From: a virus
Strand: one strand, 5' to 3'
Length of the DNA stretch: 52,608 nt
IMG/VR virus record: IMGVR_UViG_3300027896_000058
Span: 1-52,608 of that record
A program made the position numbers and the translations under genes. The notes under the pieces are model-generated. The model searched no databases. It was given only the letters and a program-made list of their open reading frames with translations, and was not told the origin of the DNA. Below are positions 3,958 through 51,448 of this stretch, one piece after another. Numbering within the stretch: position 1 is the first letter of the stretch; each line of letters begins with the position of its first letter.

Positions 3958-4478
3958 TTCAATTTCTCCAAAGCCGAAACAACAAGTTTCAATTCTGCAA
4001 GACTGGCATTATTTTTTATAGTATTCGCCTTGTATGATATGACCCAAATGTTGTCCTTGGTGTATCCCTTTTTGTTATCTATTCTGTCTATTGTAGGAGA
4101 TCCATCATGTGGCTTTCCTGTGCCAACAGATATAGGTATTCCCAGAACAGGGCAAAAAAGAGGAATGATTATGTCGGAAAGCTCTATGTCTATATCAAGC
4201 CAATTAGCCTTTGCTCTTACTTTTGCATGATGAAGCATCTTAAATTCTGGATGTTCAGCATGCCTTTTTTTCTTGTATGCAACTATATCAGGCCTTCTAT
4301 GAAAATCTTTTGGTCTATGAGCCTTTGAGTAATCATACCCACATGATCTGCACCATCTGTTTAGTTTATCTTTCTTACTATTATCGACAGAGAAAAAAGA
4401 AACATGAAGAGTGGCTTTGCATCTCTTGCAGATTTTATATCCAGGCGGTGCGGTATTTGGTTTGATTAGCTTCAACAT
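3945..4478 (-). CDS. HNH homing-type endonuclease, probable insertion
   Basis: 177 aa. After MLKLIKPNTAPPG come two zinc-knuckle pairs (Cys17/20 and Cys43/46), then a basic helical region. The C-terminal nuclease block follows: CPVLG (109-113), SPTIDRIDN (127-135) and NIWVIS with a following Asn, the signature of free-standing phage HNH endonucleases. Its base composition is visibly more AT-rich than both neighbours. It sits exactly between terminase and the 3373-3957 gene, and its last codons overlap that gene's start. It is best explained as a mobile endonuclease that inserted at the 5' end of the downstream gene. The family is fairly certain; the homing behaviour is inferred. Confidence 0.85.
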   Translation of the reverse strand: MLKLIKPNTAPPGYKICKRCKATLHVSFFSVDNSKKDKLNRWCRSCGYDYSKAHRPKDFHRRPDIVAYKKKRHAEHPEFKMLHHAKVRAKANWLDIDIELSDIIIPLFCPVLGIPISVGTGKPHDGSPTIDRIDNKKGYTKDNIWVISYKANTIKNNASLAELKLVVSALEKLKCSS

Positions 4479-6207: not shown

Positions 6208-6473
6208 AATCCGAACTTCCTCTCAAGACAACTCTCCATGAAGCTCTGAGCCCCTGCAACGGCCAGAATGAGCAAAGGGATATCAAGGCCTGCCTTGAGC
6301 ATAATAATCGTTCCTAGAGCCATCCAGACCCCTGTACAGTGCGGACAAGAGAGGAGCGCTGTGTACCTCAGAGAGAGCGCGCGCACCCTACTCATTGCTG
6401 AGAAAGGCCCCTCGTCGGTACACAGCAAGATAGTCAGCCTGTAGCAAGCAAGCGAACATATCAAAACATCCAT
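6204..6473 (-). CDS. DUF1360-like small membrane protein
   Basis: 89 aa when started at MDVLICSL, which has a clear GGGGAG site; a longer frame upstream lacks support. The pattern of a leading hydrophobic helix, RLT, TDEGPF, an arginine-rich stretch, then CPHC-GVW and two more hydrophobic helices matches the DUF1360-type membrane proteins frequent in phage packaging regions. The CPHC pair could bind metal. It overlaps the terminase start by 4 nt, so it is co-translated with terminase. The function is not established for the family. Confidence 0.75.
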   Translation of the reverse strand: MDVLICSLACYRLTILLCTDEGPFSAMSRVRALSLRYTALLSCPHCTGVWMALGTIIMLKAGLDIPLLILAVAGAQSFMESCLERKFGL

Positions 6474-6481
6474 GACTCCCC

Positions 6482-6583
6482 CTACCTGTCTATGCAGATC
6501 ATCCCAAGCACAAGCGAGAATGCCATCCCCATCACAAACCCCCAGATGAATATCTCGATAGGAGGCAATGAAAGTATAAACAT
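6482..6583 (-). CDS. Possible 33-aa single-span membrane peptide
   Basis: A short frame starting MFILSLPPIEIF and ending at TAG 6482-6484. It is almost wholly hydrophobic (one membrane helix) with IDR at the end. The start lies 3 nt beyond the stop of the 6587-7156 gene, so it could be translated by coupling, and the next gene's ribosome site follows at once. It fills the gap between the two neighbouring genes exactly. Evidence is limited to composition and packing. Confidence 0.4.
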   Translation of the reverse strand: MFILSLPPIEIFIWGFVMGMAFSLVLGMICIDR

Positions 6584-6586
6584 AGA

Positions 6587-7156
6587 TCACCCAGGAAACT
6601 TGACCGTGTTCTCACCACTCACATCACCGACCTGCTCAGGCTTGCTCATCCCCTCGATCTGTATATTCTGAGCCATTGCCCTGTTCTGTATATCGCACAT
6701 CCCGCAGTGCTGCATACTCCCAACCTTGGGTTGCTTGTCCTCAGGGATCTTCAACCACTCCTGTTCAGTCAACTGGATCGTGTGACCACACATCAACTGC
6801 AGGGTCATACTCTTCCGCTGGGGATGCTTGATAATATGCACAAGCTTCCTGAATGCCGTCTGGATACCGAGCTCCTCGTTGCGAGCCTGAGCACTTGCCT
6901 GCTTCTCGTGATGCTCTGCAAACTCATCTACCCAATGAGCCGACACGTCCAGGAACATCTGGTCATCAATCTCTTCCCATCCTTCAGCGTGCTTCTCCTC
7001 ACTGCCAACTGCGCGGAGAGCAGGTAAGCTTCCTCGGATATTCACCTCTCCAATCAACGTGTCCCCGAACACCTTCGTCGTAAGCCGACCGGCAACGAAC
7101 ATCACCATTGCCTGAGATCCCTTGAACCCGTAACACTTGCCTGCTTCAAACTTCAT
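6587..7156 (-). CDS. Hypothetical soluble protein with CxxC
   Basis: 189 aa, starting MKFEAGKCYGFKG behind GGGAGG. The first 60 residues look like a small beta barrel. The middle (70-110) is charged and helical. A CGH ... HCGMC segment (about 135-167) may bind metal. No recognised family. It is the second gene of the leftward late block, so it may be expressed before the bulk of the structural genes. Confidence is in the coding call only. Confidence 0.7.
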   Translation of the reverse strand: MKFEAGKCYGFKGSQAMVMFVAGRLTTKVFGDTLIGEVNIRGSLPALRAVGSEEKHAEGWEEIDDQMFLDVSAHWVDEFAEHHEKQASAQARNEELGIQTAFRKLVHIIKHPQRKSMTLQLMCGHTIQLTEQEWLKIPEDKQPKVGSMQHCGMCDIQNRAMAQNIQIEGMSKPEQVGDVSGENTVKFPG

Positions 7157-7172
7157 TGCCGTTCCCCTCCCT

Positions 7173-37004: not shown

Positions 37005-37280
37005 TTACGGGGCCAGTGGAACCTTTGTCCACGCGCTGTTGTAATAGACATACCACCCGATAGGCGCTCCGTCAATGTAGGTCTTGAGCCAAGGATAAGC
37101 GCGGTTGTCCGAGTTGGGTTCGTCAGGTCCGAAGTTTACAAGCGAGAGTCCATTAAGACTCTCTGCCAGAACCTCGACGTAATCAGGTATCCGTTCGATC
37201 TCTTCCTTGGCGGAAGCATGCTGAAGCGTTGACGGGACTGTGAGAGTCCGAAGTTTGAATCGTATAGTTGTGTTGCTCAT
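37005..37280 (-). CDS. Small tail-associated protein
   Basis: 91 aa from MSNTTIRF, AAAGG site. Beta-strand-rich, ending PIGWYVYYNSAWTKVPLAP, a tail common to short phage structural proteins. Sits between nozzle and adaptor genes, so likely a tail subunit or connector plug. Confidence 0.6.
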   Translation of the reverse strand: MSNTTIRFKLRTLTVPSTLQHASAKEEIERIPDYVEVLAESLNGLSLVNFGPDEPNSDNRAYPWLKTYIDGAPIGWYVYYNSAWTKVPLAP

Positions 37281-37291
37281 ATTTCCTTTCG

Positions 37292-40200
37292 TTACTGAGG
37301 CCCGACGGCCCATGGTTCATACTTCACATTGTACGGGGCGCCTGGCTGCAGTATCATTCCTACAGTGAGCGACGGGGCTCCATTATCTTCATAGTTCATC
37401 TTTCCAATAAACCATGTCAGTCCACCAGCACCAACGATCATTACCGTGTCGCCTGCCTTGTACGGGGCAGTGTCAACCTTGTACGTGATTACATAAGTTA
37501 TCAACGTGCTGGTTGGGTCGTAATACGACCAACCCCACTTCGCGGTTGGAGTATCCAACATCTGAGTGAAGTATTCACCGACGATGTTTCTCCACACCTG
37601 CCATCCTCCACCGTAGTTCACCCACAAGACTCCGTTTGCTACCATCGGCCCGGGCCAATATACAGGCAGAACTTTTATGGTTATCGTTATCAACTGCTTG
37701 TCACTTGCCTTAAGACCTGGATCTACCTCTATCGTTGCCAAGTAAGTTCCATGAGTCAGACCAACTGCAGATACAGAAGTAACCACATCTGCTTGCTGTT
37801 GCATCTCAAGATCATTCGTAGGAACGTTTGTGATCGAAACCTGACTGCTTGGAACAAGAGAGTAATTAAGAGTTGAAGGTTCGGTAGAGATATTCTTCAC
37901 CGTAAAGGTCAACGCTTCAGTGTTCGTGTTGCCTTCAATGAAACTCACCTGAGCCGTTAGAGGAGTCACCTGAAGAACCGGAGTTCCTCTGATGACTTCC
38001 GTAGTCGCATTACCGTTGATCTTTGGATCAGGAGTTGTCGCATTGATCGTAAGAGTAGCGTTTAACTTTCCACCTGTGACAACACCGGTTGTGTTGGCTA
38101 TTCCATTGTGGAAGGACGTATGAGCTGCAGTGAACGAATCAGCCTTGTCTGAACATACTCCGGTAAGGATGAGATCGTTCTTGAACTCTTTGAGAGTCTG
38201 CTTCGTCTTGTTATCAAACGCACGAACGGAGATGTCAAACGTCTTGGTTCTGTATACCTGTTTCTTGACAGTAACTTCAAGACCGATGGACGGCTTGACG
38301 TATATGTTGATCGAAATAGTATCTCCAGTTATCTCTCTTCCGTTCACGATTCCTTTGATCGTGCATAGAGCAACGTACTGAGGACCAGAGTATCCGCTGA
38401 GCATGTTGGTTGACGTGAGGGTCATCGTAGCGCCATCAGCCTTTTGCATTGATACAGGACCATGCGTAGCGCCGTCGGCCTTGTCCATGAGAATAGTTGC
38501 TCCTGCCGGCCAGTCACCATACTTCTCGCAGGTCACAATGTAGTTCATATCAGCAAGAGCGGCCAGAGGTCCACCCTGAAGCTTGTGAACAGTGAGAGAC
38601 TTCGTTGAAGTAGTGTCGGGCTCGACGAACCAGTTGTATCCGTTGAGTCCTCCAGAAACATACTCAGGCCACCAAGGGTATACCATCAGAGGCTTGTCTG
38701 GATCTTTCGGTTCAATCGGAGTTTGAGGGGTTGGCTTCAAAGGATTGACGGGTGTCAATGGCTTTGGATCCAGAGGTACAGGAGGAGGTGGCTGTCTTTC
38801 AGGATTGGGCATCCCGGGATCGACAGGGAACGGAGGCCATGGCGGAGTACTGGTCCCTGGATACATTGGTCCAGCAGGAACAATCGGAACAGTAGGAGTG
38901 CATCCTCCGCCATTTGTACATACAGGAATGATCCCTCCAGTTATAGGATCGGTCAACCACCAGTCAGTAGGAAATCCAGCATCGGGAATTCCTGCATCTA
39001 TTATGTACGCAACTCCGGGATCGAACGTGCCTTCGGTAATCACAAGCCAGTTGCCGACATCGAGGCCGATGATAAGAGCGTTCTCATTCGCAGACTCAAA
39101 CCAGTTCTTGAAGTTGCAGGTTGAGGTGTAGTCAAAGTCATCACGAGGATTGTCGATCCGCATGTTTACCGGAACGAACGAATCATTGACCGGCTGGGCG
39201 ATTGTCTTGCCAAGGAAGTCCACCCGCTTGATCTCTGCATATCCATCCCACTCAAGGCAGAACTGGAACTCGAATCCTGACAGGTACGCAAGGTGAGCTG
39301 AGTTGTCAGAAATAGATTCGTCAAGTGACGGGAATGAAAGCATGGATCTTGACTGAGGCTGACCGACGATGATGTTCAGGTTAGGGGCCGGAGAGTAGAT
39401 CTGTTGGGCAAGGACTTCCATCGAGGATACTTTGCCGTAGTCAGCTCTGTTGTCGGGCTTGACATAGAGAGTGAACGCAACATCGTTTATAAACTTGTCG
39501 ATCCAGATCTTGCACTCTCTCACGCGCTTGAACACATGAGGCACATCCATCAAGGATCCGCTTGTTGAGAACGACTGGAACGGATAGGACTTGGTGTACA
39601 GGCGACAGTTGATCGGCTTGTCTTCGCAATCATACTTCCTTGTCTCGTCGATCTCGTAGAGAAGATTCCTGTTGTTCTCATCCTTCGTGAACGCAAAGCA
39701 TCTCTGCTTGTCATGGAACAATCCAACGACCAAGTGAGTTGGCTTGATTCCGGTCCATATACCATCCCAGGCGGGACCGAGTTCGTTCTTGAGATCACTC
39801 ATGCCTGACTTGGGAGCCAGATCGAGAGAAGCGATACCCTTGAACCTGTAGTCGCGTGTGTCTGAATTGTCGATTGCCTTAGCACTGCAGATCTCTCCGT
39901 TCACGGTCATCAGGATCCTGTCATTGAACAAGACCGCTGAAGCATACGGGAGAAGCCACTGCGTGTCATTGTCGTTGACGTCCTTCATCTCCTGCCATAG
40001 ACGAGCGAATCGCCGGCGCGCCTTGACCTCAGACTTCATGAGCCTGTACGAAGCAAGACCCTGCCAGCTCATGTAGAACATGTCTTCAAGCACTGTGAGA
40101 TTGAAGTAAGGTGAAGCGGATCCATATCCTTTGATCGAGATGTGGCCGATGTTCTGTTCCTGCCAGAGCAAGCGATCCACGAACACGTCATAGTTCGCTA

Positions 40201-40927
40201 TGCCATTCTCTCCGAATACAACCAACGGTCCTTGTCCTGTGCCTGTTTCAAAGTCTGCAATGAACGCCATGCCGGTGATGTTGCCCATGTCTGTCGGGAG
40301 AGCAAAGGCTCCTCCACCATTCAAGTAGGCTGTCTCAGTGAACTGGAGAACTGTCGTCGGGCTTGTCGCCTGATAGATGTCACCTGCCAGGAACTGGTTC
40401 CTTCCGTTCTTGATGAACAATCTGCCGTGTCCATAAGCCATGACCGTACCGATAGGAAGCTCGCTCTTGGATGGATCTGCACGACGAGCGTTGAGCCCGT
40501 TGATGATCATTGGCGTGTTGATTCCATCCTGCACGATCATGAACTGTTCGGCCTGACAGAAGAAGATCCTGTCAATCCACTGGCTCATTCTACCGATCTT
40601 GTCCGACACATGACCGACTCTTCCAGTCTCTCCGTCAATCACGAACACATGACCATTCACCGCGCAGGCGATGTAACAGGTCTCTGCCGTGTTGTATTCC
40701 TTCGCACCCTGGAACCGACCATAGGTGAAAAGGTTGTATGTGAAGAGATTGTCGAAGACAAGGTTGCGAGCCTTGAACCCGGGCCTTGTCTTGATGACGG
40801 CATTGCGGCAGACGACGTTGATGCCCTTGACGTACTGCTTGTCCGTGATGTCTCTCGACGACGATCCGGAGTCCATCCCCTCGACGAGAGAGGTGAATTT
40901 ATCGTTGCAGTTTGAGACATCGCCCAT
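37292..40927 (-). CDS. Tail nozzle-like protein with Ig/BACON-like C-terminus
   Basis: 1211 aa. The first 640 residues (KGINVVCRNAVIKTRPGF, GDIYQATSPTT, SMEVLAQQIYSPAPN) follow the beta-propeller-like tail tubular B or nozzle pattern of short-tailed phages. A Cys-x5-Cys pair precedes a Pro-rich linker (about 675-745). Then come Ig-like and BACON-like domains (about 770-1080) and a terminal beta domain. The extra C-terminal third probably projects outward and may bind sugar. No enzyme motif. Confidence 0.75.
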   Translation of the reverse strand: MGDVSNCNDKFTSLVEGMDSGSSSRDITDKQYVKGINVVCRNAVIKTRPGFKARNLVFDNLFTYNLFTYGRFQGAKEYNTAETCYIACAVNGHVFVIDGETGRVGHVSDKIGRMSQWIDRIFFCQAEQFMIVQDGINTPMIINGLNARRADPSKSELPIGTVMAYGHGRLFIKNGRNQFLAGDIYQATSPTTVLQFTETAYLNGGGAFALPTDMGNITGMAFIADFETGTGQGPLVVFGENGIANYDVFVDRLLWQEQNIGHISIKGYGSASPYFNLTVLEDMFYMSWQGLASYRLMKSEVKARRRFARLWQEMKDVNDNDTQWLLPYASAVLFNDRILMTVNGEICSAKAIDNSDTRDYRFKGIASLDLAPKSGMSDLKNELGPAWDGIWTGIKPTHLVVGLFHDKQRCFAFTKDENNRNLLYEIDETRKYDCEDKPINCRLYTKSYPFQSFSTSGSLMDVPHVFKRVRECKIWIDKFINDVAFTLYVKPDNRADYGKVSSMEVLAQQIYSPAPNLNIIVGQPQSRSMLSFPSLDESISDNSAHLAYLSGFEFQFCLEWDGYAEIKRVDFLGKTIAQPVNDSFVPVNMRIDNPRDDFDYTSTCNFKNWFESANENALIIGLDVGNWLVITEGTFDPGVAYIIDAGIPDAGFPTDWWLTDPITGGIIPVCTNGGGCTPTVPIVPAGPMYPGTSTPPWPPFPVDPGMPNPERQPPPPVPLDPKPLTPVNPLKPTPQTPIEPKDPDKPLMVYPWWPEYVSGGLNGYNWFVEPDTTSTKSLTVHKLQGGPLAALADMNYIVTCEKYGDWPAGATILMDKADGATHGPVSMQKADGATMTLTSTNMLSGYSGPQYVALCTIKGIVNGREITGDTISINIYVKPSIGLEVTVKKQVYRTKTFDISVRAFDNKTKQTLKEFKNDLILTGVCSDKADSFTAAHTSFHNGIANTTGVVTGGKLNATLTINATTPDPKINGNATTEVIRGTPVLQVTPLTAQVSFIEGNTNTEALTFTVKNISTEPSTLNYSLVPSSQVSITNVPTNDLEMQQQADVVTSVSAVGLTHGTYLATIEVDPGLKASDKQLITITIKVLPVYWPGPMVANGVLWVNYGGGWQVWRNIVGEYFTQMLDTPTAKWGWSYYDPTSTLITYVITYKVDTAPYKAGDTVMIVGAGGLTWFIGKMNYEDNGAPSLTVGMILQPGAPYNVKYEPWAVGPQ

Positions 40928-40929
40928 GA

Positions 40930-41805
40930 TTACAGATTCCCGTTATTTGAAGCTATCCACTGAACATTAATGTTCACATCGTTGATAGCGCCGCATGACT
41001 GCTTGATCGTGAACCCATTCACCGTTATCGCGGTAGGATACACGACAAGGATCGCGCCAAGCGCAGACACAGGATTGTACGACAAGACCACGTTAGGGAC
41101 CGTTGTAAAGGCCTTGGTGAAGGTTACAGTGCCTATCGTTTCATCGGCAGTACTAAGCGTAGGGTTACATCCTGCGACGATCCCAGAGGCAACCAGGTGG
41201 CTTGGTTGGACTGCTGGCCATACCTTGGCGCCGGCTGTCAGGCTCAATCCCGCGGCCATGTTGTTTGAGTCCACGTTCATCACGGTAATGCTGAGAGCGA
41301 TTGTGTCCACTGCCAGAACCTTGTAGAACCCTGCACCCTCTACGAAGATCGTCATGCCAGTCTCGCACCACATGTCAGCGCGCTGGAGGTAGAAGACGGA
41401 CGAAGATGTTCCGGCCGGAGCAACGAAGATCTCGGTTGTCAGGTCGTACAGGGCAAACGGAGAGACTGTCGCGCTATACGACAGATCCGGCTGAGCACAA
41501 GGCATCATGACTGTCCCGATAGGGATAGCAGATCCGGCTGCACCATTGGCGGATACCCCGTCATTGATGACGTAGATGTGAGTTGCGTCAGGTGTTCCTG
41601 TCACTCGGAAGAAGCCTGCGCCGGAGATCCAGATCCACATGCTGATCCGGTACTGACTTGACTGAAGGACTTCAACCGTAGTCTGTGATCCGATGTTTGG
41701 AATCACGAAGGTTTCAAGAAGCTGTTCAGTGAACGGATGAACGTGGTTAACCTGGACTGCAGACTGTTCGATGTTGAATACTGTAAGTGTCGGCGGCTGA
41801 ATCAT
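40930..41805 (-). CDS. Tail protein with internal repeat and lectin-like end
   Basis: 291 aa, GAGGAC site. Two copies of a roughly 45-residue unit around GAGFFRV (about 60-70) and GAGFYKV (about 157-163) are visible. The C-terminal 70 residues (VTFTKAFTTVPNVVLSY, VNGFTIKQSCG, VQWIAS) fit the H-type lectin-like fold of tail tips. Possible receptor-binding or adhesion role. Confidence 0.6.
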   Translation of the reverse strand: MIQPPTLTVFNIEQSAVQVNHVHPFTEQLLETFVIPNIGSQTTVEVLQSSQYRISMWIWISGAGFFRVTGTPDATHIYVINDGVSANGAAGSAIPIGTVMMPCAQPDLSYSATVSPFALYDLTTEIFVAPAGTSSSVFYLQRADMWCETGMTIFVEGAGFYKVLAVDTIALSITVMNVDSNNMAAGLSLTAGAKVWPAVQPSHLVASGIVAGCNPTLSTADETIGTVTFTKAFTTVPNVVLSYNPVSALGAILVVYPTAITVNGFTIKQSCGAINDVNINVQWIASNNGNL

Positions 41806-42576: not shown

Positions 42577-43341
42577 TCAGGATTCGATAAGTGTAATTTT
42601 CCACATGTCCGAGGCAAGACTTGGATTCGAGATGAACGAGTAAGGGAGATAGAAGAATCCCTTATCGCCCCATCCGGATCCCCATGAGTTTTGAACCTTG
42701 AACATCTTTCTCTGGTCGTTGTATCCGACTGCGAGAACCGCGTGTCCGCCCAGAAGCGACTCGTTCCTGGCAGGCATTGGCACGATCCCGGTACGGGCAA
42801 CGATGTCGGATTCAAAACTGTCATAGACAGAGAATCCAAAGACAAAGGGAAATCCAGAAGCAAGGCATGATCTCATGTCGTCAAGACTCTGGATCACTGA
42901 AGCGTATAGCATGACCTGATGTTTGGCCGCATGCGTGTAGCAAGACTTGAGCGGCTTCTTCGTGAACTTGGTCACGTCGTACTTCCACTCAGTTTCCGGA
43001 CAGACTCCAAGAGTTGCGACAGACTTCATCCCGTCACGGATCTGGGCGCCTGAGTCCTGCTTGACAGTGCCTTCCATTTCACGCTCGTTGTAATAGATGA
43101 ACAGGCGGGAAGGCGTAAACTTCTCTTTCGCGTCTTGCTTGATCTGTTCAAAGTAATGGCAGGAAGCAATGGCATTTGCCGTACAGGATCCGAGCTGACC
43201 TTGATTCAAGATCGGGACGATTGGGTTCGCCAGGTCGATCATCGAAGGAAGGTTCTCAGGTATGTGAACCGGCAGGAACTTGAAGTCACGGAAGTCGATG
43301 TGATCCTTATGCCAGCCGTATGATCGTTTGATCTTTTTCAT
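42577..43341 (-). CDS. Papain-family (C1) cysteine peptidase
   Basis: 254 aa. Gln47 and Cys53 in NQGQLGSC, His200 in LLGGHAV and Asn218 in VQNSWG give the complete papain triad plus oxyanion Gln. The YGWHKDHIDFRD start is the usual lead of bacterial and phage C1 enzymes. It may cut peptide cross-links of the wall, or process virion or host proteins. It lacks a signal peptide and a long propeptide, so access to the wall would need the holin. Confidence 0.85.
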   Translation of the reverse strand: MKKIKRSYGWHKDHIDFRDFKFLPVHIPENLPSMIDLANPIVPILNQGQLGSCTANAIASCHYFEQIKQDAKEKFTPSRLFIYYNEREMEGTVKQDSGAQIRDGMKSVATLGVCPETEWKYDVTKFTKKPLKSCYTHAAKHQVMLYASVIQSLDDMRSCLASGFPFVFGFSVYDSFESDIVARTGIVPMPARNESLLGGHAVLAVGYNDQRKMFKVQNSWGSGWGDKGFFYLPYSFISNPSLASDMWKITLIES

Positions 43342-43835
43342 CCTTTCACCTTTTGGCTCGGCTTCACTACGATTGTGATCTGACTGCCATAATTACCATT
43401 CGCGTTTACCACGATCCCGTTGTTGACTGTCGGGGAAGCCGTAGCAGTAGAAGCACTGGCCGAAGACTCGTCCTTATCGCTCAGGCCAAGAAGCTTCGGA
43501 TTGTTGGCAATGATCGGCGTCACAACGACAAGGATCGCGGCTGCGGTAACAGTCTTCGGGAACTGTACGGGAACCTGAGCCATTGTCTTGAAGAACCCTA
43601 CCTTTGCCACGCTATCCTTGAATGTCCAGACATCTGCCGTAACTACCCCGCCAGACAGCGATGGAGCCACCTGGATGCCCGTAGGATCGACGATCTTTGC
43701 AGGTACGGGTGTTTGTATGGCTCCGACTGCTTTGTCGGCTCTGAGAGCCATCTGTGTAGGATCTCGAAACGACATATCTTCCCCTGCTACCACACTGGTT
43801 GCCGCCAATACGATCACTGCCATTATCTTGTTCAT
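43338..43835 (-). CDS. Predicted secreted/envelope protein
   Basis: 165 aa from MNKIMAVIV, AAAGG site. A clear signal peptide with cleavage around VVA-GE (about 17), then a beta-rich part and a second hydrophobic segment (about 95-115). The tail is Ser/Ala/Asn-rich. It overlaps the peptidase start by 4 nt. It could be an envelope-acting lysis helper or a fibre-associated protein. Confidence 0.6.
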   Translation of the reverse strand: MNKIMAVIVLAATSVVAGEDMSFRDPTQMALRADKAVGAIQTPVPAKIVDPTGIQVAPSLSGGVVTADVWTFKDSVAKVGFFKTMAQVPVQFPKTVTAAAILVVVTPIIANNPKLLGLSDKDESSASASTATASPTVNNGIVVNANGNYGSQITIVVKPSQKVKG

Positions 43836-43857
43836 ATCACATACCTTTCTTGTTTTA

Positions 43858-44193
43858 CTATTCATGCCAGTTCCCTCCAAGTTCCGAAAGATGCCACACC
43901 TCATGTCCCAATGTGTATAGGTCAGGGTGTCGCGGCCCGTCAGGTTGCACCCAAATTGTTCTCGTCATCTCATCGTAAAAGCCACGCACCTGTTCGCGTT
44001 TGTGAGCCTCGTGCTTATCCCATTCCTTTTGAATCGTGCCACGATCTGCAACCTTAATCGTGAATGTATCCACCCCATACTCAGCCACGCCCTTATGCAT
44101 CACGCACCCGCAGCCTAGCTGTACGGCTACAACGACACAGAGGATTGCAACCCAGATTAGGCCAAATGCGCGGTAGGTGAGGAGGTGGTTCAT
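43858..44193 (-). CDS. Small membrane-anchored or lipoprotein-like HExxH protein
   Basis: 111 aa. A hydrophobic helix (about 8-27) ends VQLGCGC, close to but not a perfect lipobox. The rest is soluble with LGHEVWHLSELGGNWHE (HExxH 97-101, with later His110 and Glu111). A minimal zinc metallopeptidase-like module on a membrane anchor. It sits between the fibre and lysis genes and could be a spanin-position lipoprotein or an envelope protease. Confidence 0.65.
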   Translation of the reverse strand: MNHLLTYRAFGLIWVAILCVVVAVQLGCGCVMHKGVAEYGVDTFTIKVADRGTIQKEWDKHEAHKREQVRGFYDEMTRTIWVQPDGPRHPDLYTLGHEVWHLSELGGNWHE

Positions 44194-46046
44194 CTCCCCT
44201 CCAACTTGAGCAATCGCGCTTTCAGTGCCTTACGCGCAATAATCTCATCACGCAATGCCGCTTGCAGGTAGCCGCACCAGCCGACGAGGTCAATGCCAGC
44301 GTTAGGGTCGCCATTGGCGCAAATCTCACGGGGTATCTGCGGGTCATCCAGCATGATGCCAACATGAGTCGCTTGGAACTTAGGCAATGCCGCTTTAGCC
44401 GTTGAGAGTTCATCGCGTTTGGCTTCGACCATCGCAGGTTCAAAACTATCAACGATCAACGCCTTTTCTGCCACGGGTTCCGATACACCCTTTTCATCCA
44501 TTGTTGCGAGTTCCATTAAGGCTTCATCGGTCGTGATGATAGCATCGGCCTTATCCATTCTCTGCAACACTTCCTCGTCACGCACAATCGGTTTACGTTT
44601 CCAGCGGTACACGGGAATCAGTGACAATTCGTCGGCGTAGTTCTTGACCACATCGACTTCAACAATATCCTTCGCGTCACGGTTGCAGGTGTAGGTTGTC
44701 CATGAGTCGGCAATGGGATCGGTCGCGGATGTTTGGACGATGGAGAGGATGTTTGTGCCGGTGGTGGTCCCGATTCCCACGTTGCGCCCAGAAGATATAC
44801 GCATTGCCTCTGCATTGTCGTTATTGTTTGTACCAGCAAAAAATGCCATGTACATAGGAACACTATTGCTGGCAACAGTGCCCTCTGAATACACTTTAAT
44901 TGATGCACTATTAATATACGAATAGCCATCATATCCATGAAATTCTACATTTCCTGCACGATCACCGGAGCTAACAGATACAGGAGCATCGGGATTTCCT
45001 CTAGCTTTTTTCAGGGTAATCACCGGAGGAGATGCGTCCGCAGAGAACTGACTGAATATCGCTGTTCTATCTGCAATGCCAGCAGTAGATATTACTCTTA
45101 ATGGTGTGTTTGTTCCTCCATAAATAACCATCACTGCGTTGGTCACATTGTTCGTTCCTATCCCAACTCGTCCAAGAAACGTATTCACAGCCCCCGCCAC
45201 CGTCTGCGTGATGGACGCGCACGAGATGTTAGTGGCCAAAATGTCACCGGCAACGTGGAGCTTGGCGGCGGGAGAGGTTGTGCCGATGCCGACCAATCCC
45301 CCGAAGTAACTCTTCGTCGTCCCGTCAATATACACCCCGTAATTATTTGACGCGCCAATAAGATTCGCCACGCGCAGGCCGTATTGATTTAGGCATGTTC
45401 CACCTCCCATATAGATATCTCTTGCGGCAAAATGCTCCACGTCTGTTATGGCTATCTTGGACCCTGCAACAGTTTCGGCTCCACTATCGAATCCCCTAAT
45501 ATGGGCCACTGTGCCCGAAGATGATGATCCGAACAAGGGATATGCAAATGCGCCCCGTATATACGGAGTACCTGTAAACTGACTGCGTATATCCATGGCT
45601 GTCGTAAAACCTTGAAAAGCGAATCCCCCGGTGCAATCAAAAGCCATACTACTTAAAATCGGTTGTATCTGAAAATTATTATATACACCCGCTCCGGTAG
45701 GCGCGGCAGGAGACACCGTTGTCCCTAATTGCATATCGTAACTGGCATTTACTACCGCTGTTTTGGTGCTAGCAATGTTCACAATATTACTGAACACGGA
45801 CACGCCCTTGAATACATTAGTCGAGGCGGCAGAGCTATTCGTAATCCCGCCGCTGACTTGGAGGGTTGTTGCGGTAATGTTGGATGCAATCACTTGGGCA
45901 ACAACACCAGATACGGAATTGATACTAGACCACTTCAGAGATGACGTACCTAAATTACCTTCGTTACTTGCTCTTGGGACAACATCTCTCGTTGCACCTG
46001 AACACAGCGAAACCAACAACATAAAATACACGATTAGCTTTTTCAT
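44190..46046 (-). CDS. Exported tail fibre with S74-like C-terminus
   Basis: 618 aa from MKKLIVYF; the ATGA overlaps the upstream gene, with GGAGG upstream. Signal peptide of about 20 residues. The centre is Thr/Asn/Ser-rich with two VGIGT repeats (near PAAKLHVAG and TNILSIV). The last 150 residues fit the intramolecular chaperone (peptidase S74) domain: the TYTCNRDAKDI segment, LSLIPVYRWK, HVGIMLDD and a final coiled coil. In normal S74 a Ser-Lys dyad cuts the domain off; here Cys stands at the Ser position. Likely a trimeric fibre or spike. Confidence 0.7.
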   Translation of the reverse strand: MKKLIVYFMLLVSLCSGATRDVVPRASNEGNLGTSSLKWSSINSVSGVVAQVIASNITATTLQVSGGITNSSAASTNVFKGVSVFSNIVNIASTKTAVVNASYDMQLGTTVSPAAPTGAGVYNNFQIQPILSSMAFDCTGGFAFQGFTTAMDIRSQFTGTPYIRGAFAYPLFGSSSSGTVAHIRGFDSGAETVAGSKIAITDVEHFAARDIYMGGGTCLNQYGLRVANLIGASNNYGVYIDGTTKSYFGGLVGIGTTSPAAKLHVAGDILATNISCASITQTVAGAVNTFLGRVGIGTNNVTNAVMVIYGGTNTPLRVISTAGIADRTAIFSQFSADASPPVITLKKARGNPDAPVSVSSGDRAGNVEFHGYDGYSYINSASIKVYSEGTVASNSVPMYMAFFAGTNNNDNAEAMRISSGRNVGIGTTTGTNILSIVQTSATDPIADSWTTYTCNRDAKDIVEVDVVKNYADELSLIPVYRWKRKPIVRDEEVLQRMDKADAIITTDEALMELATMDEKGVSEPVAEKALIVDSFEPAMVEAKRDELSTAKAALPKFQATHVGIMLDDPQIPREICANGDPNAGIDLVGWCGYLQAALRDEIIARKALKARLLKLEGR

Positions 46047-48013
46047 AACGGTTGCAATCCTCCAGTTGTGTTTGTCTCCCATAAAGCATCAGACTGAAAA
46101 ACACTTACAGGTTCCAGTCCTCCAGTTAAGTTAATATCCCAAGCTCCATTGGTCGTAACTTGAATGCTGATATAGCCGACAGCATTGGTTCTGGTGAATG
46201 CAGAAGTTCCCCCAGATACAACAAGATTGGTAATAATATTGTTCGTGCTCACTGGCTGAAGCGCGGTTGCAACCCCACCACTCACGCTGACCATCCAGTT
46301 TGAAATATTATTTATTGAGCTGGCAAACAATGCCTGAGTTGATGCAGACATCGTAAGTCCATTAGACCAAATAAGAGAGGACACATTTGTAACACTGAAT
46401 CCTCCAAGGCTCAAATCAGACAGCATTGGCAACGTGCCATCAACACGTAAATATCCAAGGTCAGCGGTGGACAACGTAATGTCCATCTGCGAGGGATAGT
46501 TTGTACCCACTCCTACAATGATATTGGTTGTAGCTCCACCGCCGGAAGATGATGCAAGTTTTGACCGTACCGCAAAATACCAAGGTACATTGGTGGAAAT
46601 ATTAGGCAATGGAATTACCCAAGATGAGATGACAGGAACCGCGCCTTTATCCACAAGATTGCTTGCCGCCGCATCGCCCCACTCAATGAATAAATGTGTG
46701 GAAGGCTCGTACCTGTAAACTTCTATCTTTGCGTACTTGGTGTTGTTTCCGCCCGTATTGTCGCAGACATAGTAATTAACTTTAGCACTGCCGCCACCAT
46801 ACACGGTAAACAACTGATTCGTCCAAATTGAACAAGCAAAGTAGCCGCCTATGGGTGCGCCATTTGTTCTAATAGCCTGCACTGGAGGGATGCCGTCACT
46901 GATCACATACGTTGCGTTGGTGGGCGTAATATCATTAGTGTACGAAAGAGTTTTATTGGAGGTAAAATACAGAGTCTTATTCGCGTTGATTACGGAGCGC
47001 AACTGAGCCAGTGTCACGGGCTGGTTGCTGATTGTGGCATCCGGAATGGTCATGGTGTAGAGACCGCCGTTGTTGGTGAAATAAGATGATGGAGCAAGTC
47101 CGCCAAGTTTTCCGGAATCTTTCACTGTTCCATTCGTTGCGTTGTCTACATAGGTAACTGATGCAAGTCCATTCGTGACTGTCTGATTTGTGAATGAGTT
47201 TGGATTGTTGGTTGGATAGAAATAGGTAAGTGTCCAACCCTTCAAAGTGTTCGTTGCTGAGTCCACGTACCCGATGGAAGCAAGACCGTTCGTGATCGCG
47301 GCTGTCACATAGTTCTTGAGAGTTACCCAATTCGTAACAGAAGACCAGAGTGTGTTCGTGGATGAATCAACATATGCCAGGGAAGCGAGTCCATTCGTTA
47401 TCGCAGACGTGACATAGTTCTTTCCGAGGATCCAGTTCGTTACCGTAGACCAGAGAGTATTCGTTGCGCCATCGACGTATAGGAGGCTTGCAAGGCCATT
47501 GGTGACGCTTGAATTAACCAACCCTTGTGTTGATATGGGGTAAAGGAGATTGTTCGTTATACCGTATCCTAAGAGGCTTGTAGGTGTGTTGGTGATGTTG
47601 TTCCAGTTGCGGAAGAAGTTCGTATCCACAACGAAAGCAGGAAAGCCTGTGTTCACGCTCATCACGAATGCGCCGTTGCTGTAGACAAAGCCCCAGAAGT
47701 TCGTGAGCTTGAGAACCGTGTTCGTGGATCCGATCTTGTTCGTGTTCGCTACAAGCCAAGCCCAGGCATTCGATCCAGAGTAATCATTCGTGGGAATCGA
47801 GATCCCCCAATTGTGCGGAGTAATCTTCTGAACGTATCCAGTAGACGAAGGAGCCAAGAGCGTGAGCTGGTAGATCGAGCCGGTAGACGAGGAACTATTC
47901 GAAGAGATGTTGCTGAGAACGTAGGGCTTGTAGTACGGCCAATCATTTCCCTGTGCTTTCGTTTCAGAAAACAATGCCAAGAAAATGATGAGCCGTACCA
48001 TCCATCGGAACAT
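46043..48013 (-). CDS. Exported repetitive fibre-like protein
   Basis: 656 aa, AGGAGT site, TAATG coupling upstream. Signal peptide with TKA-QG cleavage (about 20). Asn/Thr-rich throughout, with tandem 35-residue repeats (TNGLAS-YVD-TN-LW-VTNW, see the repeat entry). The C-terminal 250 residues are beta-rich. No enzyme motif. Reads as an elongated trimeric fibre or adhesin. Confidence 0.7.
   Translation of the reverse strand: MFRWMVRLIIFLALFSETKAQGNDWPYYKPYVLSNISSNSSSSTGSIYQLTLLAPSSTGYVQKITPHNWGISIPTNDYSGSNAWAWLVANTNKIGSTNTVLKLTNFWGFVYSNGAFVMSVNTGFPAFVVDTNFFRNWNNITNTPTSLLGYGITNNLLYPISTQGLVNSSVTNGLASLLYVDGATNTLWSTVTNWILGKNYVTSAITNGLASLAYVDSSTNTLWSSVTNWVTLKNYVTAAITNGLASIGYVDSATNTLKGWTLTYFYPTNNPNSFTNQTVTNGLASVTYVDNATNGTVKDSGKLGGLAPSSYFTNNGGLYTMTIPDATISNQPVTLAQLRSVINANKTLYFTSNKTLSYTNDITPTNATYVISDGIPPVQAIRTNGAPIGGYFACSIWTNQLFTVYGGGSAKVNYYVCDNTGGNNTKYAKIEVYRYEPSTHLFIEWGDAAASNLVDKGAVPVISSWVIPLPNISTNVPWYFAVRSKLASSSGGGATTNIIVGVGTNYPSQMDITLSTADLGYLRVDGTLPMLSDLSLGGFSVTNVSSLIWSNGLTMSASTQALFASSINNISNWMVSVSGGVATALQPVSTNNIITNLVVSGGTSAFTRTNAVGYISIQVTTNGAWDINLTGGLEPVSVFQSDALWETNTTGGLQPL
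47163..47520 (-). repeat. Tandem 105-bp repeats in the fibre gene
   Basis: Copies start at about 47490, 47385 and 47280, exactly 105 bp apart, with a diverged fourth 117 bp further on (47163). Each encodes the TNGLAS, YVD, TNTLW and VTNW elements. Copy number may vary between relatives. Confidence 0.75.
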
Positions 48014-48507
48014 TACAACTCCTGTATTGCCACCACGTTTGTCTTCGTCGGGTTGGAGACAGCGTTGATCGGCTGCTGGAGCAGGAACGCAGGAACATCA
48101 ATCTCAGTTGCGGCCGCAAGATGAACTCCATTCGAGTACACCGCAATGTCATCACCGAAGGAAAGCCAGATCTCTGCCGCGCCGCCGTTGTAGATCCGGC
48201 ACATCCCGCGTGACGCATGAGGAACGAACAGATATGACAACCCGTTCGTGGAGTAAGTGCCGTTCAAGTGAGTCGGCATATTGGTTGATGTCCCGCCGGC
48301 CACTGTCACCATGTAGATCTTGTTGCTGGCATTCACCATTGCGCCCTGAGCGTATGCAACGTTCGTGGTCCACAACGGAGCAGACTGAAGATAGTTGAAC
48401 CTCGGGGACACGATCTTCTGGCTCGTAGGAGTCACGGAGAACTGTCTTGGTGCATCTGCGAAAGCCGATACTGCGATCATCATTACTGCAAGAAACATTT
48501 TCTTCAT
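48013..48507 (-). CDS. Exported virion-like beta protein
   Basis: 164 aa, AAGGAGAT site. Signal peptide ending near AFA-DA (17). It then carries a W-TTNVAYAQGAMV-Y-V-AGGTST-THLNG-type phage carbohydrate-binding fold, and a second domain with RIYNGGAAEIWLSFG and EIDVPAFLL typical of virion decoration or fibre proteins. Same direction and tight spacing as the other exported proteins. Confidence 0.65.
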   Translation of the reverse strand: MKKMFLAVMMIAVSAFADAPRQFSVTPTSQKIVSPRFNYLQSAPLWTTNVAYAQGAMVNASNKIYMVTVAGGTSTNMPTHLNGTYSTNGLSYLFVPHASRGMCRIYNGGAAEIWLSFGDDIAVYSNGVHLAAATEIDVPAFLLQQPINAVSNPTKTNVVAIQEL

Positions 48508-48516
48508 TTGATCTCC

Positions 48517-48930
48517 TTACGGTGCGCGATAGATAATAACCCACGTTGATGTTGACGTTCCCATTGAACTGTAAATCATGTTCGTCGTTACCGAATTAGG
48601 AGCCGGTGAAGACAGAACATAAGAATCTCCGATGAACCTGGGCGTCTGATTCGTGGGAACTCCGGTAGAGTTCGTTGTGAAGTACGGAGCAAACATGTTC
48701 GTGATCGCATACGCAACATAGTTCGTGCTGGCCCTTGATGCAAGGTTCGTGGCAAGGACGATGTTGTTATCCATCCAAGTCACCAGATCCGACAGCCGGT
48801 TCGATGTTGAGAGCGTGATGTTGTAGAGCCCGTTTGTCGTGATTGAGATCTGATAATCAGGAACCTTCTGTTCCGCGTGCAGGTTCATTGCAAGGATTAT
48901 CGAGGCAAGGATCAGCGCAAGTTTCTTCAT
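48517..48930 (-). CDS. Exported Asn/Thr-rich protein
   Basis: 137 aa, GGGGGAA site. Signal peptide with LHA-EQ cleavage (about 19). The mature part is Asn/Thr/Ser-rich beta sequence with NYVAYAITN resembling the fibre repeats. Probably a small fibre component. Confidence 0.65.
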   Translation of the reverse strand: MKKLALILASIILAMNLHAEQKVPDYQISITTNGLYNITLSTSNRLSDLVTWMDNNIVLATNLASRASTNYVAYAITNMFAPYFTTNSTGVPTNQTPRFIGDSYVLSSPAPNSVTTNMIYSSMGTSTSTWVIIYRAP

Positions 48931-48938
48931 GGTTCCCC

Positions 48939-49217
48939 CTATACTGCCTTGACGTAGAACGCGCAGATCTGGGCCTGTGCATTCGGAGCCGAAGTAAAAG
49001 TGATTGTCTGGTTGAGGATCGTGTAATCAATCCCCTGTCTCTGCATGACTCCATTGATGAAGATCACTACAGTTGCGACTGCAATCGGAAGACTGCTTAA
49101 GGTGCAGACGTTTCCCCCTACGAGCAGGAGAGATTCCTGAACATACTGAGTGGAGGGGATGGAGTAGTTGTTGACCGTCGTCGTGGTTGTCGGTGGCTCG
49201 CAGCAGTTCTGACTCAT
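48939..49217 (-). CDS. Small structural (tail/fibre) protein
   Basis: 92 aa, GGGGGAG site. It starts SQNCCEPPTTTTT and has the FINGVMQRQGIDYTI ... ITFTSAPNAQAQI pattern of phage fibre and tail domains. No signal peptide, unlike its neighbours. Confidence 0.65.
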   Translation of the reverse strand: MSQNCCEPPTTTTTVNNYSIPSTQYVQESLLLVGGNVCTLSSLPIAVATVVIFINGVMQRQGIDYTILNQTITFTSAPNAQAQICAFYVKAV

Positions 49218-49244
49218 GTGTTCTCCCCCTCTTCCTTCCCCTTC

Positions 49245-49278
49245 GGGCCGGCAGTGCCAAGAATAACACCACCGGCCC
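49245..49278 (-). promoter_or_regulatory. GC-rich hairpin in the late leader
   Basis: GGGCCGG/CCGGCCC (7 bp) between the 49298 stop and the 48939 ribosome site, without a T tract. It may protect or separate messages within the late block. Confidence 0.4.
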
Positions 49279-49297
49279 AGGGTCAGGGAACGGCAAT

Positions 49298-49801
49298 TTA
49301 CCAGATCGCGATGTAGGACAGATTCGTCTGGACCGCTGCCCAGATGATATTGTTCGAGCTGATCGTCGGAAGTATCAGCGCAACAGTGGTGGCAACATTC
49401 GTTGCTGTGCCTGTGTAGCGCCAGCTTACCGAGATCGGGGAGCTTGTATGAACGCGGGCAAACGTGCCAGTGACAGTCGCGCCGGCAATGGCCGCAACAG
49501 TACCACGTTCAATCGCATAGACCGGATCACTGTTGAACTGAACAGTGTTAGCGACTCCATTGGAGCCCGGACCGATCTGGATCGCGCCGTTCGCAGTTGC
49601 CTGCGAGAGACCGTTGCTCAGACCGTTACCGATTACGATTGCACCAGTAGTCCCATTGGCGATGAACCCATCACCAACAAGCGTACCTTTCCACGTCGGC
49701 GCTGACGGCATCGAGGGATTCGTGCCGAGAGTACCTTCACCTGCGAGCGCGTAGCTTACTGCGAGAACAACCGCGAGAAGACCAACCATGATTTTTTTCA
49801 T
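49298..49801 (-). CDS. Exported decoration-like protein next to capsid
   Basis: 167 aa. Clear signal peptide (MKKIMVGLL..., ALA-GE cleavage, about 20). The mature part is a Gly/Ala/Thr-rich beta protein (GAIVIGNGLSNGL, then SPISVSWRYTG). It is the first gene after the capsid, where head decoration proteins usually lie, but carries a Sec signal. Unknown family. Confidence 0.6.
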   Translation of the reverse strand: MKKIMVGLLAVVLAVSYALAGEGTLGTNPSMPSAPTWKGTLVGDGFIANGTTGAIVIGNGLSNGLSQATANGAIQIGPGSNGVANTVQFNSDPVYAIERGTVAAIAGATVTGTFARVHTSSPISVSWRYTGTATNVATTVALILPTISSNNIIWAAVQTNLSYIAIW

Positions 49802-49853
49802 TCGTATTTACCTCTGCTGAATTTCTTTCTGACGTTTGATTGCTTACGATAAG

Positions 49854-49884
49854 GTTCCCTGCCAGGGATCACCCAGCAGGGAAC
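49854..49884 (-). terminator. Hairpin after the capsid gene
   Basis: GTTCCCTGC/GCAGGGAAC, 9 bp perfect, 8 nt after the capsid stop, with no long T tract. It may be a weak terminator or mRNA stabiliser, as often seen behind capsid genes. Confidence 0.55.
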
Positions 49885-49891
49885 TGTTTGT

Positions 49892-51448
49892 TCAGACTCT
49901 TGTACCACCGCAAGTTACTGTGGCAGGGCCACCGTATGCAGCGCAACGACCAGTTGCCACTCCGACAGGGAACACGATCTTGTAGATCGGTGCTGCGAAG
50001 TCCTCAGCGATCACGCCCACAACTGCCGTGGACGGGCTCGTTCCGGTCACTGTGACCATCTGGCCCACGTCACAAGGCAAGCAACTTGCCAGTGTGAGAT
50101 AGTACTCTGTCGCGTCTGCCGCAACGTCCGAGGCATTAACCTGGGCGCATGCGCTGACTGCTATCGGGCTGGATCCAGCTGTCCAACAGGTCGGGCATTC
50201 CGTGATCTCAAGCTCGTTGCACCGGCGATGCAGGATGCAGATTGCGTCGTTGGAATGGATCCAAGGTTCAGGCGCGATCCTGAAGCGACTGAAGAAGAAG
50301 CCTTTCTCCCTCAACAGATTGTCGCAACGCTCCTGTATGTTCAGCCAGTGGAATTCACCGAAGTTGTCCGCAGGGTCGAACTTGTAACCGGACGCCAGCG
50401 AGCTGGGGTTCGGGGTGGGTGTCAACGCCTTGTACACATCCTTCAGGAATACCGCGCTGATTTCGAAGGGAGCCGCGATGTAAGCCGGATTGATGTCGAT
50501 CGCATTGCCGATAGTCGTCGGGCTTTCCAGGAACGGCCACACGCGGGTAAGTGCTGTGCCGAGCGCATTCACGACAAGGCGGGGAGCCGCAGGGTCATGG
50601 ATGTGCGAGAAGCCACGGTACGTCAGCGCTGATCCGTATCCCTGAATGAGATACTCTTCCTGCAGGTATCGGTAGTCCTTGCGGATTTCCGTGTCCTTGG
50701 TGATGACTTCATTCGACGTTTCCATCGAGGTGATCAGACCGAAGATAGGTGAACCGGACTTCATCCCGAGGGCAGCGTCAGCGGCCTGACGGGAGAGATA
50801 CGAGTACACGCGGTCAAGGACGCTCTGGGTCAGGCGACCGATGTCACCAATGCCCGCGGCCGGGATCGCCACGGTGGACGAGAACATGCCCATCGTGAAG
50901 GTCTTGAGTCCGAGGTTCGTGGTGTTGCTGGGATCTGCCTGTGCATAGAACTTCTTGCAGAAGTTGAGATACAGTTCGCGCGTGATCTGTTCCCACTCAC
51001 CCAAGGTCACATTGGCAAGAGCCTGATAGATCAGGGCCAACTGCTTTTCGTACTGCCAGTCGAACATGATGTCGGTCAGGCAGATGTCGTTGGTACGACG
51101 GGTTGCCTGATAGATCGTGTAGGACTTCTGCTCGAAACCGTAGTTGATGACTTCGCTCTGATAAGCGCAAGCATCATAACCGGCATCGTCAGATCCGTTG
51201 GTCTTGGGCGCGCGGCTCTGCTGCATCTGCGACCATGAGGCGCCTGCGTCCTGGACGGCGATACCACCGTAGAAGGTTTCATTGTACTTGGTGTAGCCTT
51301 TGCCGTACTCGAAATTGCCACGCTCAATCAGGTCGCGATATACGGCTTTGTACATCTTGGACTTGTTGGCGATGATCGGGTTGATGTCAGGGACTGCGGC
51401 GATAAATGCGTTGTTGATTTGTTCGACATTACAAGGTGTGGATTCCAT
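49892..51448 (-). CDS. Major capsid protein
   Basis: 518 aa, strong TGGAGGA site. It has the helix-rich N-arm and core elements of an HK97-fold capsid protein: NFEYGKGYTKYNETFYGG, then the long spine-helix region LGEWEQITRELYLNFCKKFYAQ. The C-terminal 110 residues form a Cys-rich appended beta domain (ECPTC, LASCLPC, GGPATVTCGG). It follows the scaffold and is flanked by hairpins, typical of a highly expressed gene. Assigned from position, length and composition. Confidence 0.8.
   Translation of the reverse strand: MESTPCNVEQINNAFIAAVPDINPIIANKSKMYKAVYRDLIERGNFEYGKGYTKYNETFYGGIAVQDAGASWSQMQQSRAPKTNGSDDAGYDACAYQSEVINYGFEQKSYTIYQATRRTNDICLTDIMFDWQYEKQLALIYQALANVTLGEWEQITRELYLNFCKKFYAQADPSNTTNLGLKTFTMGMFSSTVAIPAAGIGDIGRLTQSVLDRVYSYLSRQAADAALGMKSGSPIFGLITSMETSNEVITKDTEIRKDYRYLQEEYLIQGYGSALTYRGFSHIHDPAAPRLVVNALGTALTRVWPFLESPTTIGNAIDINPAYIAAPFEISAVFLKDVYKALTPTPNPSSLASGYKFDPADNFGEFHWLNIQERCDNLLREKGFFFSRFRIAPEPWIHSNDAICILHRRCNELEITECPTCWTAGSSPIAVSACAQVNASDVAADATEYYLTLASCLPCDVGQMVTVTGTSPSTAVVGVIAEDFAAPIYKIVFPVGVATGRCAAYGGPATVTCGGTRV

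What the first reader, a model, noticed from the sequence alone, without database searches (positions are those of the whole stretch)
43338..49801. Run of six Sec-signal-bearing proteins inside the virion/fibre module
The genes at 43338, 44190, 46043, 48013, 48517 and 49298 all begin with a basic start, a hydrophobic core and an A-x-A-type cleavage site, and several are otherwise ordinary fibre or virion domains (an S74-like end, carbohydrate-binding folds, tandem fibre repeats). Tail fibres are normally cytoplasmic. Export of a whole fibre set would imply envelope-stage assembly, receptor masking, or decoration of the host surface. Seen: signal shape and repeat domains. Inferred: the purpose.
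Basis: partly seen in the sequence, partly recalled or inferred. Interest (0 to 1): 0.72.

Follow-up and report, generated by a model that had tools for sequence, protein, structure and literature searches.

The report
Phage fibre proteins with export signals
An uncultured short-tailed-type virus of bacteria makes several tail-fibre-like proteins that begin with a secretion signal, so they are probably sent into the host's envelope before the cell bursts rather than built onto the virus inside the cell, and a minority of its distant relatives do the same.

Summary
All six named genes have a Sec-type N-terminus at a plausible start. With one neighbour (44193..43858) they are the only genes of about 40 that score as signal-bearing, all inside a 12-gene stretch next to the major capsid gene. 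Two starts need trimming (S2 to 46046, S1 to 43835). SignalP could not be run; a calibrated rule-based caller was used.

S2 is clearly fibre-type, S4 weakly, S3 by motifs only; S5, S6 and S1 match nothing. Not the whole fibre set is exported: g48939, the H-type lectin gene and the conserved tail-fibre gene 37005 carry no signal.

Relatives (terminase 28-44% identical) show the trait again: an 842-aa pectate-lyase tailspike, several long fibres, and signal genes as first gene after the capsid gene in L138 and, apparently, L140. In one fibre family the signal drifts while the mature start is conserved, as in working signal peptides. But most relatives lack it, and fibre-like genes are not significantly enriched for signals overall.

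Best explanation: accessory exported adhesins acting at the host envelope before lysis. Main rival: virion fibres that join particles at lysis. Closest known: Bdellovibrio MAT fibres and lambda Lom.

The parts
49298..49801 (-). S6, 167 aa, first gene after the major capsid gene; signal MKKIMVGLLAVVLAVSYALA^GEG; function unknown
   Evidence: highest caller score in the window (15.85); AGAGG Shine-Dalgarno; no Pfam or PHROG match
48939..49217 (-). 92-aa fibre-type domain protein WITHOUT a signal, inside the run
   Evidence: phrog_2710 tail fiber E 2.5e-6; no signal call
48517..48930 (-). S5, 137 aa; signal MKKLALILASIILAMNLHA^EQK; function unknown
   Evidence: caller 13.2; AGGGGG Shine-Dalgarno
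48013..48507 (-). S4, 164 aa; signal MKKMFLAVMMIAVSAFA^DAP; CBM5/12-like stretch shared with phage virion proteins
   Evidence: caller 14.1; phrog_6005 virion structural E 5e-6; Pfam CBM_5_12 E 0.014, below cut-off
46043..48013 (-). S3, 656 aa; signal MFRWMVRLIIFLALFSETKA^QGN; tandem fibre-type repeats (e.g. NWNNITNTPTSLLGYGITN, VTNGLASLAYVDSSTNTLW)
   Evidence: caller 11.9, the weakest of the six; start overlaps the S4 stop; no family match; fibre assignment rests on sequence motifs
44190..46046 (-). S2, 618 aa from the internal ATG; signal MKKLIVYFMLLVSLCSGA^TRD; fibre shaft, beta-helix domain, possible chaperone-like C-terminus
   Evidence: phrog_18345 and phrog_9942 tail fiber E 1e-8 and 5e-8; PDB 8OL4 over residues 339-438, E 2.6e-10; ATGA overlap with the S3 stop
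43858..44193 (-). 111-aa membrane-anchor or signal-bearing protein with HExxH near its C-terminus (seventh member, not in the finding)
   Evidence: caller 14.4; HEVWH in the translation; Pfam DUF6647 E 0.013, below cut-off
43338..43835 (-). S1, 165 aa from the internal ATG; signal MNKIMAVIVLAATSVVA^GED; not recognisably a fibre; one further hydrophobic stretch
   Evidence: caller 12.9; no family match; max 19-residue hydropathy 1.84
42577..43341 (-). papain-family (C1) cysteine protease without a signal, next gene after S1
   Evidence: Pfam Peptidase_C1 E 1e-12, phrog_16701 E 1e-18
49892..51448 (-). major capsid protein, directly upstream of the run
   Evidence: 34% identical to the MCP-position protein of L138 and homologous in 35 earlier related loci; identity as MCP inferred from position after scaffold and portal
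40930..41805 (-). H-type lectin-domain virion-type protein without a signal
   Evidence: Pfam H_lectin E 7e-7, above cut-off; no signal call
37005..37313 (-). conserved small tail-fibre-type gene without a signal; homologues in relatives include long unsignalled fibres
   Evidence: tblastn to 20 related loci; weak match to L096, whose 562-aa gene 5475-7163 in the corresponding position matches PHROG tail fibre families E 1e-14
49840..49880 (-). hairpin (ttccctgc...gcagggaa) between the capsid gene and S6
   Evidence: sequence read directly; hairpins at the same place in L138 and L140

Best explanation
These are late-expressed, phage-encoded accessory adhesins. Each is made as a preprotein, carried across the inner membrane by the host Sec machinery and cleaved by signal peptidase I (sequence evidence only). 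The mature fibre-type proteins S2 and S3, and the smaller S4-S6, then fold and oligomerise outside the cytoplasm and bind envelope glycans or receptors of the infected cell before lysis. There they would block superinfection, or keep newly released virions from sticking to the dying host and its debris. They are built from fibre modules, but in the relatives where it can be seen the signal takes the place where ordinary phage fibres have an N-terminal virion-binding part. Shown: signal-type N-termini, fibre-type domains in some members, recurrence in related phages, signal-like evolution in one family, separate unsignalled fibre-type genes in the same genomes. Inferred: actual export, place of action, purpose.
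For: Seven signal-type starts in 12 adjacent genes and none elsewhere. S2 carries fibre domains; its closest solved relative, Bd2439, belongs to the MAT fibres that Bdellovibrio exports and displays on its surface (PMC10769870). Recurrence in relatives: first gene after the capsid gene in L138 (MKKFIATLSAVVLGMLAAHVGLAQ, AGGAG site); an 842-aa tailspike with signal MKIFLFALLTCVAALAQ downstream of the capsid gene in G221 (EPS depolymerase PHROG E 2e-16, PDB 5W5P tail fiber E 4e-10, Pfam pectate lyase-like E 2e-8); G008; long fibres in G010-G014, with three signal genes in a row after an unsignalled fibre in G014. In the G010/G013/G014 fibre family the signal diverges (pN about 0.5 between G014 and the others) while the adjoining mature sequence is conserved (pN 0.15), yet K-K, hydrophobic core and small residues stay. 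Against ordinary virion attachment: in the G221 spike PHROG alignments begin at profile position 143 of 786 and 174 of 761 while starting at residues 31 and 38 of the protein. L104 likewise aligns from profile position 149 at residue 67. Unsignalled fibre-type genes are present in the same genomes.
Against: No export, cleavage or localisation has been measured, and SignalP was not run. None of S2-S6 has a recognisable outer-membrane anchor, lipobox or autotransporter end, so how they would reach the outside of a diderm host before lysis is unexplained. No blocking activity or receptor is known. S2 and S3 are the only long fibre-type proteins in the window apart from the extended tail gene 37292-40927, so the virion may need them. 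Among related phages fibre-like genes are not significantly richer in signals than other genes (6 of 174 against 29 of 1732, Fisher p 0.13); most signal genes there are small lysis-type or lipoprotein genes. The host is unknown.
Confidence: 0.45

Rival explanations
1. The signalled proteins are true virion fibres with two-compartment assembly: capsid and tail form in the cytoplasm, fibres are exported, folded and stored in the periplasm, and they attach to the particle during or after lysis.
For: S2 and S3 sit in the virion module directly after the capsid gene, tightly coupled to neighbouring genes, and are the only long fibre-type genes there. In G014 the signalled fibre is ATGA-coupled to an unsignalled adaptor-like gene, and in G010 an adaptor-like start and a signal-fibre form one open frame. 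From general knowledge, P22 tailspikes can be added to finished heads in vitro.
Against: The N-terminal part of ordinary spikes, where virion binding usually lies, is missing in the signalled spike. Unsignalled fibre-type genes exist in the same genomes. No precedent was found in the held literature.
Confidence: 0.25
2. The hydrophobic N-terminus is not used for export: it stays on the protein and serves as a hydrophobic plug or anchor that docks the fibre into the tail.
For: Fibre N-termini are docking regions; the rule-based caller cannot separate signals from anchors.
Against: Basic n-region, core length and small residues at -3/-1 all fit Sec signals, and the G010/G013/G014 signals vary freely in sequence, unlike a specific docking helix. 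Small unrelated proteins S5, S6 and L125:5469-5888 carry the same type of start.
Confidence: 0.1
3. The genes are captured bacterial surface-adhesin genes (morons) that still carry their own signals and benefit the host or simply hitch-hike, like lambda lom.
For: S2 resembles a bacterial exported fibre; lom, between J and the side tail fibre gene in lambda, scores as signal-bearing.
Against: No integrase or lysogeny gene was seen among the annotated genes. No bacterial homologue with a signal was found: of 199 Planctomycetota genomes two had weak hits to S2 and none to S3, and the host phylum is unknown. Recurrence next to the capsid gene in divergent phages argues for a phage function.
Confidence: 0.12
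4. Mixed set: S1 and 44193..43858 belong to the lysis/host-envelope module, and only some of the rest are exported adhesins.
For: S1 and 43858 lie next to the protease and a putative holin-like gene. In relatives most signal genes are small lysis-type proteins or lipoproteins.
Against: Does not explain S2-S6; no spanin family match for S1 or 43858.
Confidence: 0.08

Closest known systems
Mosaic adhesive trimer (MAT) fibres of Bdellovibrio bacteriovorus (PMC10769870; PDB 8OL4/8ONF, Bd2439)
   Same: Phage-fibre-like beta-helix domain (S2 residues 339-438, E 2.6e-10) in exported, modular fibres that carry a signal peptide
   Different: MATs are chromosomal predator genes with experimental surface display; here a phage encodes them beside its capsid gene, no S74 domain is detected and no display is shown
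Lambda Lom (exported outer-membrane protein encoded between J and the side tail fibre gene)
   Same: Signal-bearing protein embedded in the tail-fibre region of a phage
   Different: Lom is not a fibre protein; here the signals are on several fibre- or virion-type proteins
Ordinary podovirus tail fibres and tailspikes, e.g. PDB 5W5P
   Same: Fibre and pectate-lyase domains in S2 and in the G221 spike
   Different: A signal peptide stands where the N-terminal part of the profile, usually the virion-binding part, should be

Membership tests
Sec-exported preprotein | basic n-region, hydrophobic core, small residues at -3/-1 | tested here: met
   rule-based caller, all six at 11.9-15.9
Sec-exported preprotein | SignalP/DeepTMHMM call, cleavage by signal peptidase, export | not testable with these tools
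   no such program; needs experiment
Sec-exported preprotein | signal evolves faster than the mature part while keeping its properties | tested here: met
   G010/G013/G014 fibre family only; not testable for S1-S6, no homologues found in the related phages
Caudovirus tail fibre/tailspike | fibre-family domain | tested here: met
   S2 E 1e-8; S4 only weakly; S3 motifs only; S1, S5, S6 no match
Caudovirus tail fibre/tailspike | cytoplasmic protein with N-terminal virion-binding domain | tested here: inconclusive
   G221 spike and L104 lack the first 142 and 148 profile positions; for S2/S3 it cannot be judged
Caudovirus tail fibre/tailspike | present in purified virions | not testable with these tools
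   uncultured phage
MAT fibre family | fibre beta-helix related to Bd2439 | tested here: met
MAT fibre family | S74 peptidase/chaperone domain (S74 subfamily) | tested here: not met
   Pfam PF13884 no match at E 1; model unusable
MAT fibre family | conserved ~130-aa domain right after the signal | not tested
   no sequence of that domain was in hand
Trimeric autotransporter (YadA/Eib type) | C-terminal YadA-type membrane anchor | tested here: not met
   no Pfam match in any of the six at E 1
Lambda Lom/Ail-type moron | signal-bearing gene inside the tail-fibre region | tested here: met
Lambda Lom/Ail-type moron | Ail/Lom outer-membrane barrel | tested here: not met
   no Pfam match

The most novel reading that the evidence does not exclude
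A tailed-phage lineage that builds its receptor-binding fibres in a second compartment: signal-bearing fibres are exported, matured in the periplasm and joined to cytoplasm-made particles only at lysis.
Probability: 0.2. Interest if true: 0.85.

Novelty: new variant of a known kind. Interest (0 to 1): 0.55.

Why it matters
Tail fibres are taken to be cytoplasmic, and phage annotation rarely looks for signals on virion-type genes; in one survey, five lytic rumen phages had 0 to 2 predicted signals each (PMC5723332). A phage with a block of signal-bearing fibre-type proteins after its capsid gene, echoed by a signalled pectate-lyase tailspike and long signalled fibres in distant relatives, points either to fibre-derived envelope factors (superinfection exclusion or receptor blocking) or to a second route of fibre assembly. 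Either can be tested with a few cloned N-termini. It also warns that 'tail fibre' annotation does not guarantee a virion protein.

Tried and rejected
Scans of viral contigs with the window's capsid protein and with S3 found no relatives; S3 and the L104 and G221 fibres have no tblastn match in cultured phages. Planctomycetota genomes gave two weak hits to S2 and none to S3; the one I could read further (G188) is cut off before its N-terminus and the other gave no clear gene. AlphaFold on single sequences of the S2 C-terminus and mature S4 was useless (pLDDT 41 and 33), so no fold search was run. 'Chance hydrophobic leaders' was rejected by clustering, conserved hydrophobic pattern and recurrence. 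'General trait of this phage group' was rejected: most relatives lack signalled fibres. 'Lipoproteins' was rejected: no canonical lipobox in the six. L028 (signal-like stretch inside a longer frame, TTG start) was kept as doubtful. Exported and unsignalled proteins of the window share no sequence, so no direct 'self-copy' masking pair was found.

Full report
What the window is. The window is a whole IMG/VR virus record of 52,608 bases. A scaffold-like gene appears to run over its ends, so the genome is probably near complete (inference). Recognised genes include a large terminase at 4495-6207, whose relatives were found at 28-44% identity, a portal at 590-2914, a capsid protein at 49892-51448, a tail gene at 37292-40927 with homologues in 46 related loci, a DnaB-type helicase and a ParB-like protein. 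It resembles short-tailed phages, but no cultured close relative was found.

Check of the observation. All six genes exist as described. The starts of S3, S4, S5 and S6 are at the first ATG; S4, S5 and S6 have strong ribosome sites and S3 overlaps the stop of S4. S2 and S1 start at internal ATGs: S2 at 46046 with an ATGA overlap with the S3 stop, S1 at 43835 behind GAAAGG. A rule-based caller, calibrated on known E. coli proteins, T7 and lambda, scores all six between 11.9 and 15.9. The only other real gene at 11 or above is 44193..43858. All seven fall within 12 of 40 genes (p 4e-5). Mature S2-S6 have no further membrane span. The caller mixes signals with anchors, so cleavage is predicted, not shown.

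What the proteins are. S2 matches PHROG tail fibre families and, over residues 339-438, the solved beta-helix fibre Bd2439 of Bdellovibrio (E 2.6e-10). That protein belongs to the MAT fibres, which are exported and displayed on the predator's surface (PMC10769870). The S74-like end of S2 is not confirmed. S4 has a CBM5/12-like stretch shared with virion proteins. S3 has repeats and motifs typical of tail fibres but no family match. S5, S6 and S1 are orphans. Gene 48939-49217 inside the run, the H-lectin gene 40930-41805 and the conserved gene 37005-37313 have virion- or fibre-type features and no signal. So the claim of 'a whole fibre set' is too strong.

Relatives. 82 terminase-related loci, 73 new portal-related loci and larger pieces of some 25 records were scanned. 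Most carry no signalled fibre. The exceptions are informative. L138, among the nearest relatives, has a signal gene directly after the capsid gene with an AGGAG site, and L140 begins one at the same place before its contig ends. G221 has an 842-aa pectate-lyase tailspike with a signal downstream of the capsid gene. G008 has a signalled fibre-type gene near the capsid gene. G010, G013 and G014 share a fibre family with signals and G012 has a related one; G014 has three signal genes after an unsignalled fibre-type gene. Two relatives, L039 and L072, encode a signalled trypsin-like protease; in L072 it lies next to the tail gene.

Are the signals working signals? In the G010/G013/G014 family the signal changes at about half of the nonsynonymous sites between G014 and the others, while the adjoining mature sequence changes at 15%, and lysines, core and small residues remain. 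That is how signal peptides evolve. An overall test was negative: 6 of 174 fibre-like and 29 of 1732 other proteins of relatives carry signals (p 0.13). The trait is therefore a recurring minority, not a rule.

How it may work. If exported, these proteins are separated from the particles forming in the cytoplasm. In the G221 spike and in L104 the family profiles align only from position 143-174 and 149 onward although the proteins begin shortly after the signal. The part that usually binds the virion seems to be replaced by the signal (inference). Unsignalled fibre-type genes are present alongside. I therefore favour accessory exported adhesins acting at the host envelope before lysis (0.45), over virion fibres that join at lysis (0.25), captured bacterial adhesins (0.12), uncleaved docking helices (0.10) and a mixed lysis set (0.08). 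None of these is shown.

Comparison with what is known. It works most like Bdellovibrio MAT fibres and, by location, like lambda Lom, but membership in either is not claimed. Literature searches found no report of Sec-exported tail fibres in tailed phages; the library holds only open-licence papers, so this is weak evidence of absence.

Noticed in passing
window 49840-49880 (-); L138:9518-9548; L140:11550-11572: A strong GC-rich hairpin without a clear T-run lies between the capsid gene and the following signal gene in three phages; possibly a partial terminator or mRNA protector.
   Followed up: partly
L039:134-1021 (-); L072:835-1716 (-): Signal-bearing trypsin-like protease (Pfam Trypsin_2) inside the fibre/tail module of related phages; in L072 next to the tail gene.
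   Followed up: partly
window 42577-43341 (-): Papain-family cysteine protease without a signal between the signal run and the lysis-type genes.
   Followed up: partly
window 43858-44193 (-): 111-aa protein with a signal or anchor and an HExxH...H motif, possibly a small envelope metalloprotease.
   Followed up: no
L028:18845-20994 / L120:23-3106: An adaptor-like fibre start and a signal-like stretch (LQRVALSILAALAIVSSSTAQ) occur in one open frame, suggesting fusion of an unsignalled adaptor to a formerly signalled fibre.
   Followed up: partly
window 3373-3957 and 3945-4478 (-): Two adjacent unrelated genes share the same first 13 residues (MLKLIKTNTAPPG / MLKLIKPNTAPPG, 12 of 13 identical), perhaps a duplicated start.
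   Followed up: no
window 37292-40927 (-): The tail gene has a ~640-aa C-terminal extension beyond the conserved part, with a proline-rich linker.
   Followed up: no
L083 (NHEC01000087.1): The only hit in bacterial genomes to this terminase family is a 9.5-kb contig filed in a Planctomycetes MAG (TMED75); it looks like a phage fragment.
   Followed up: partly
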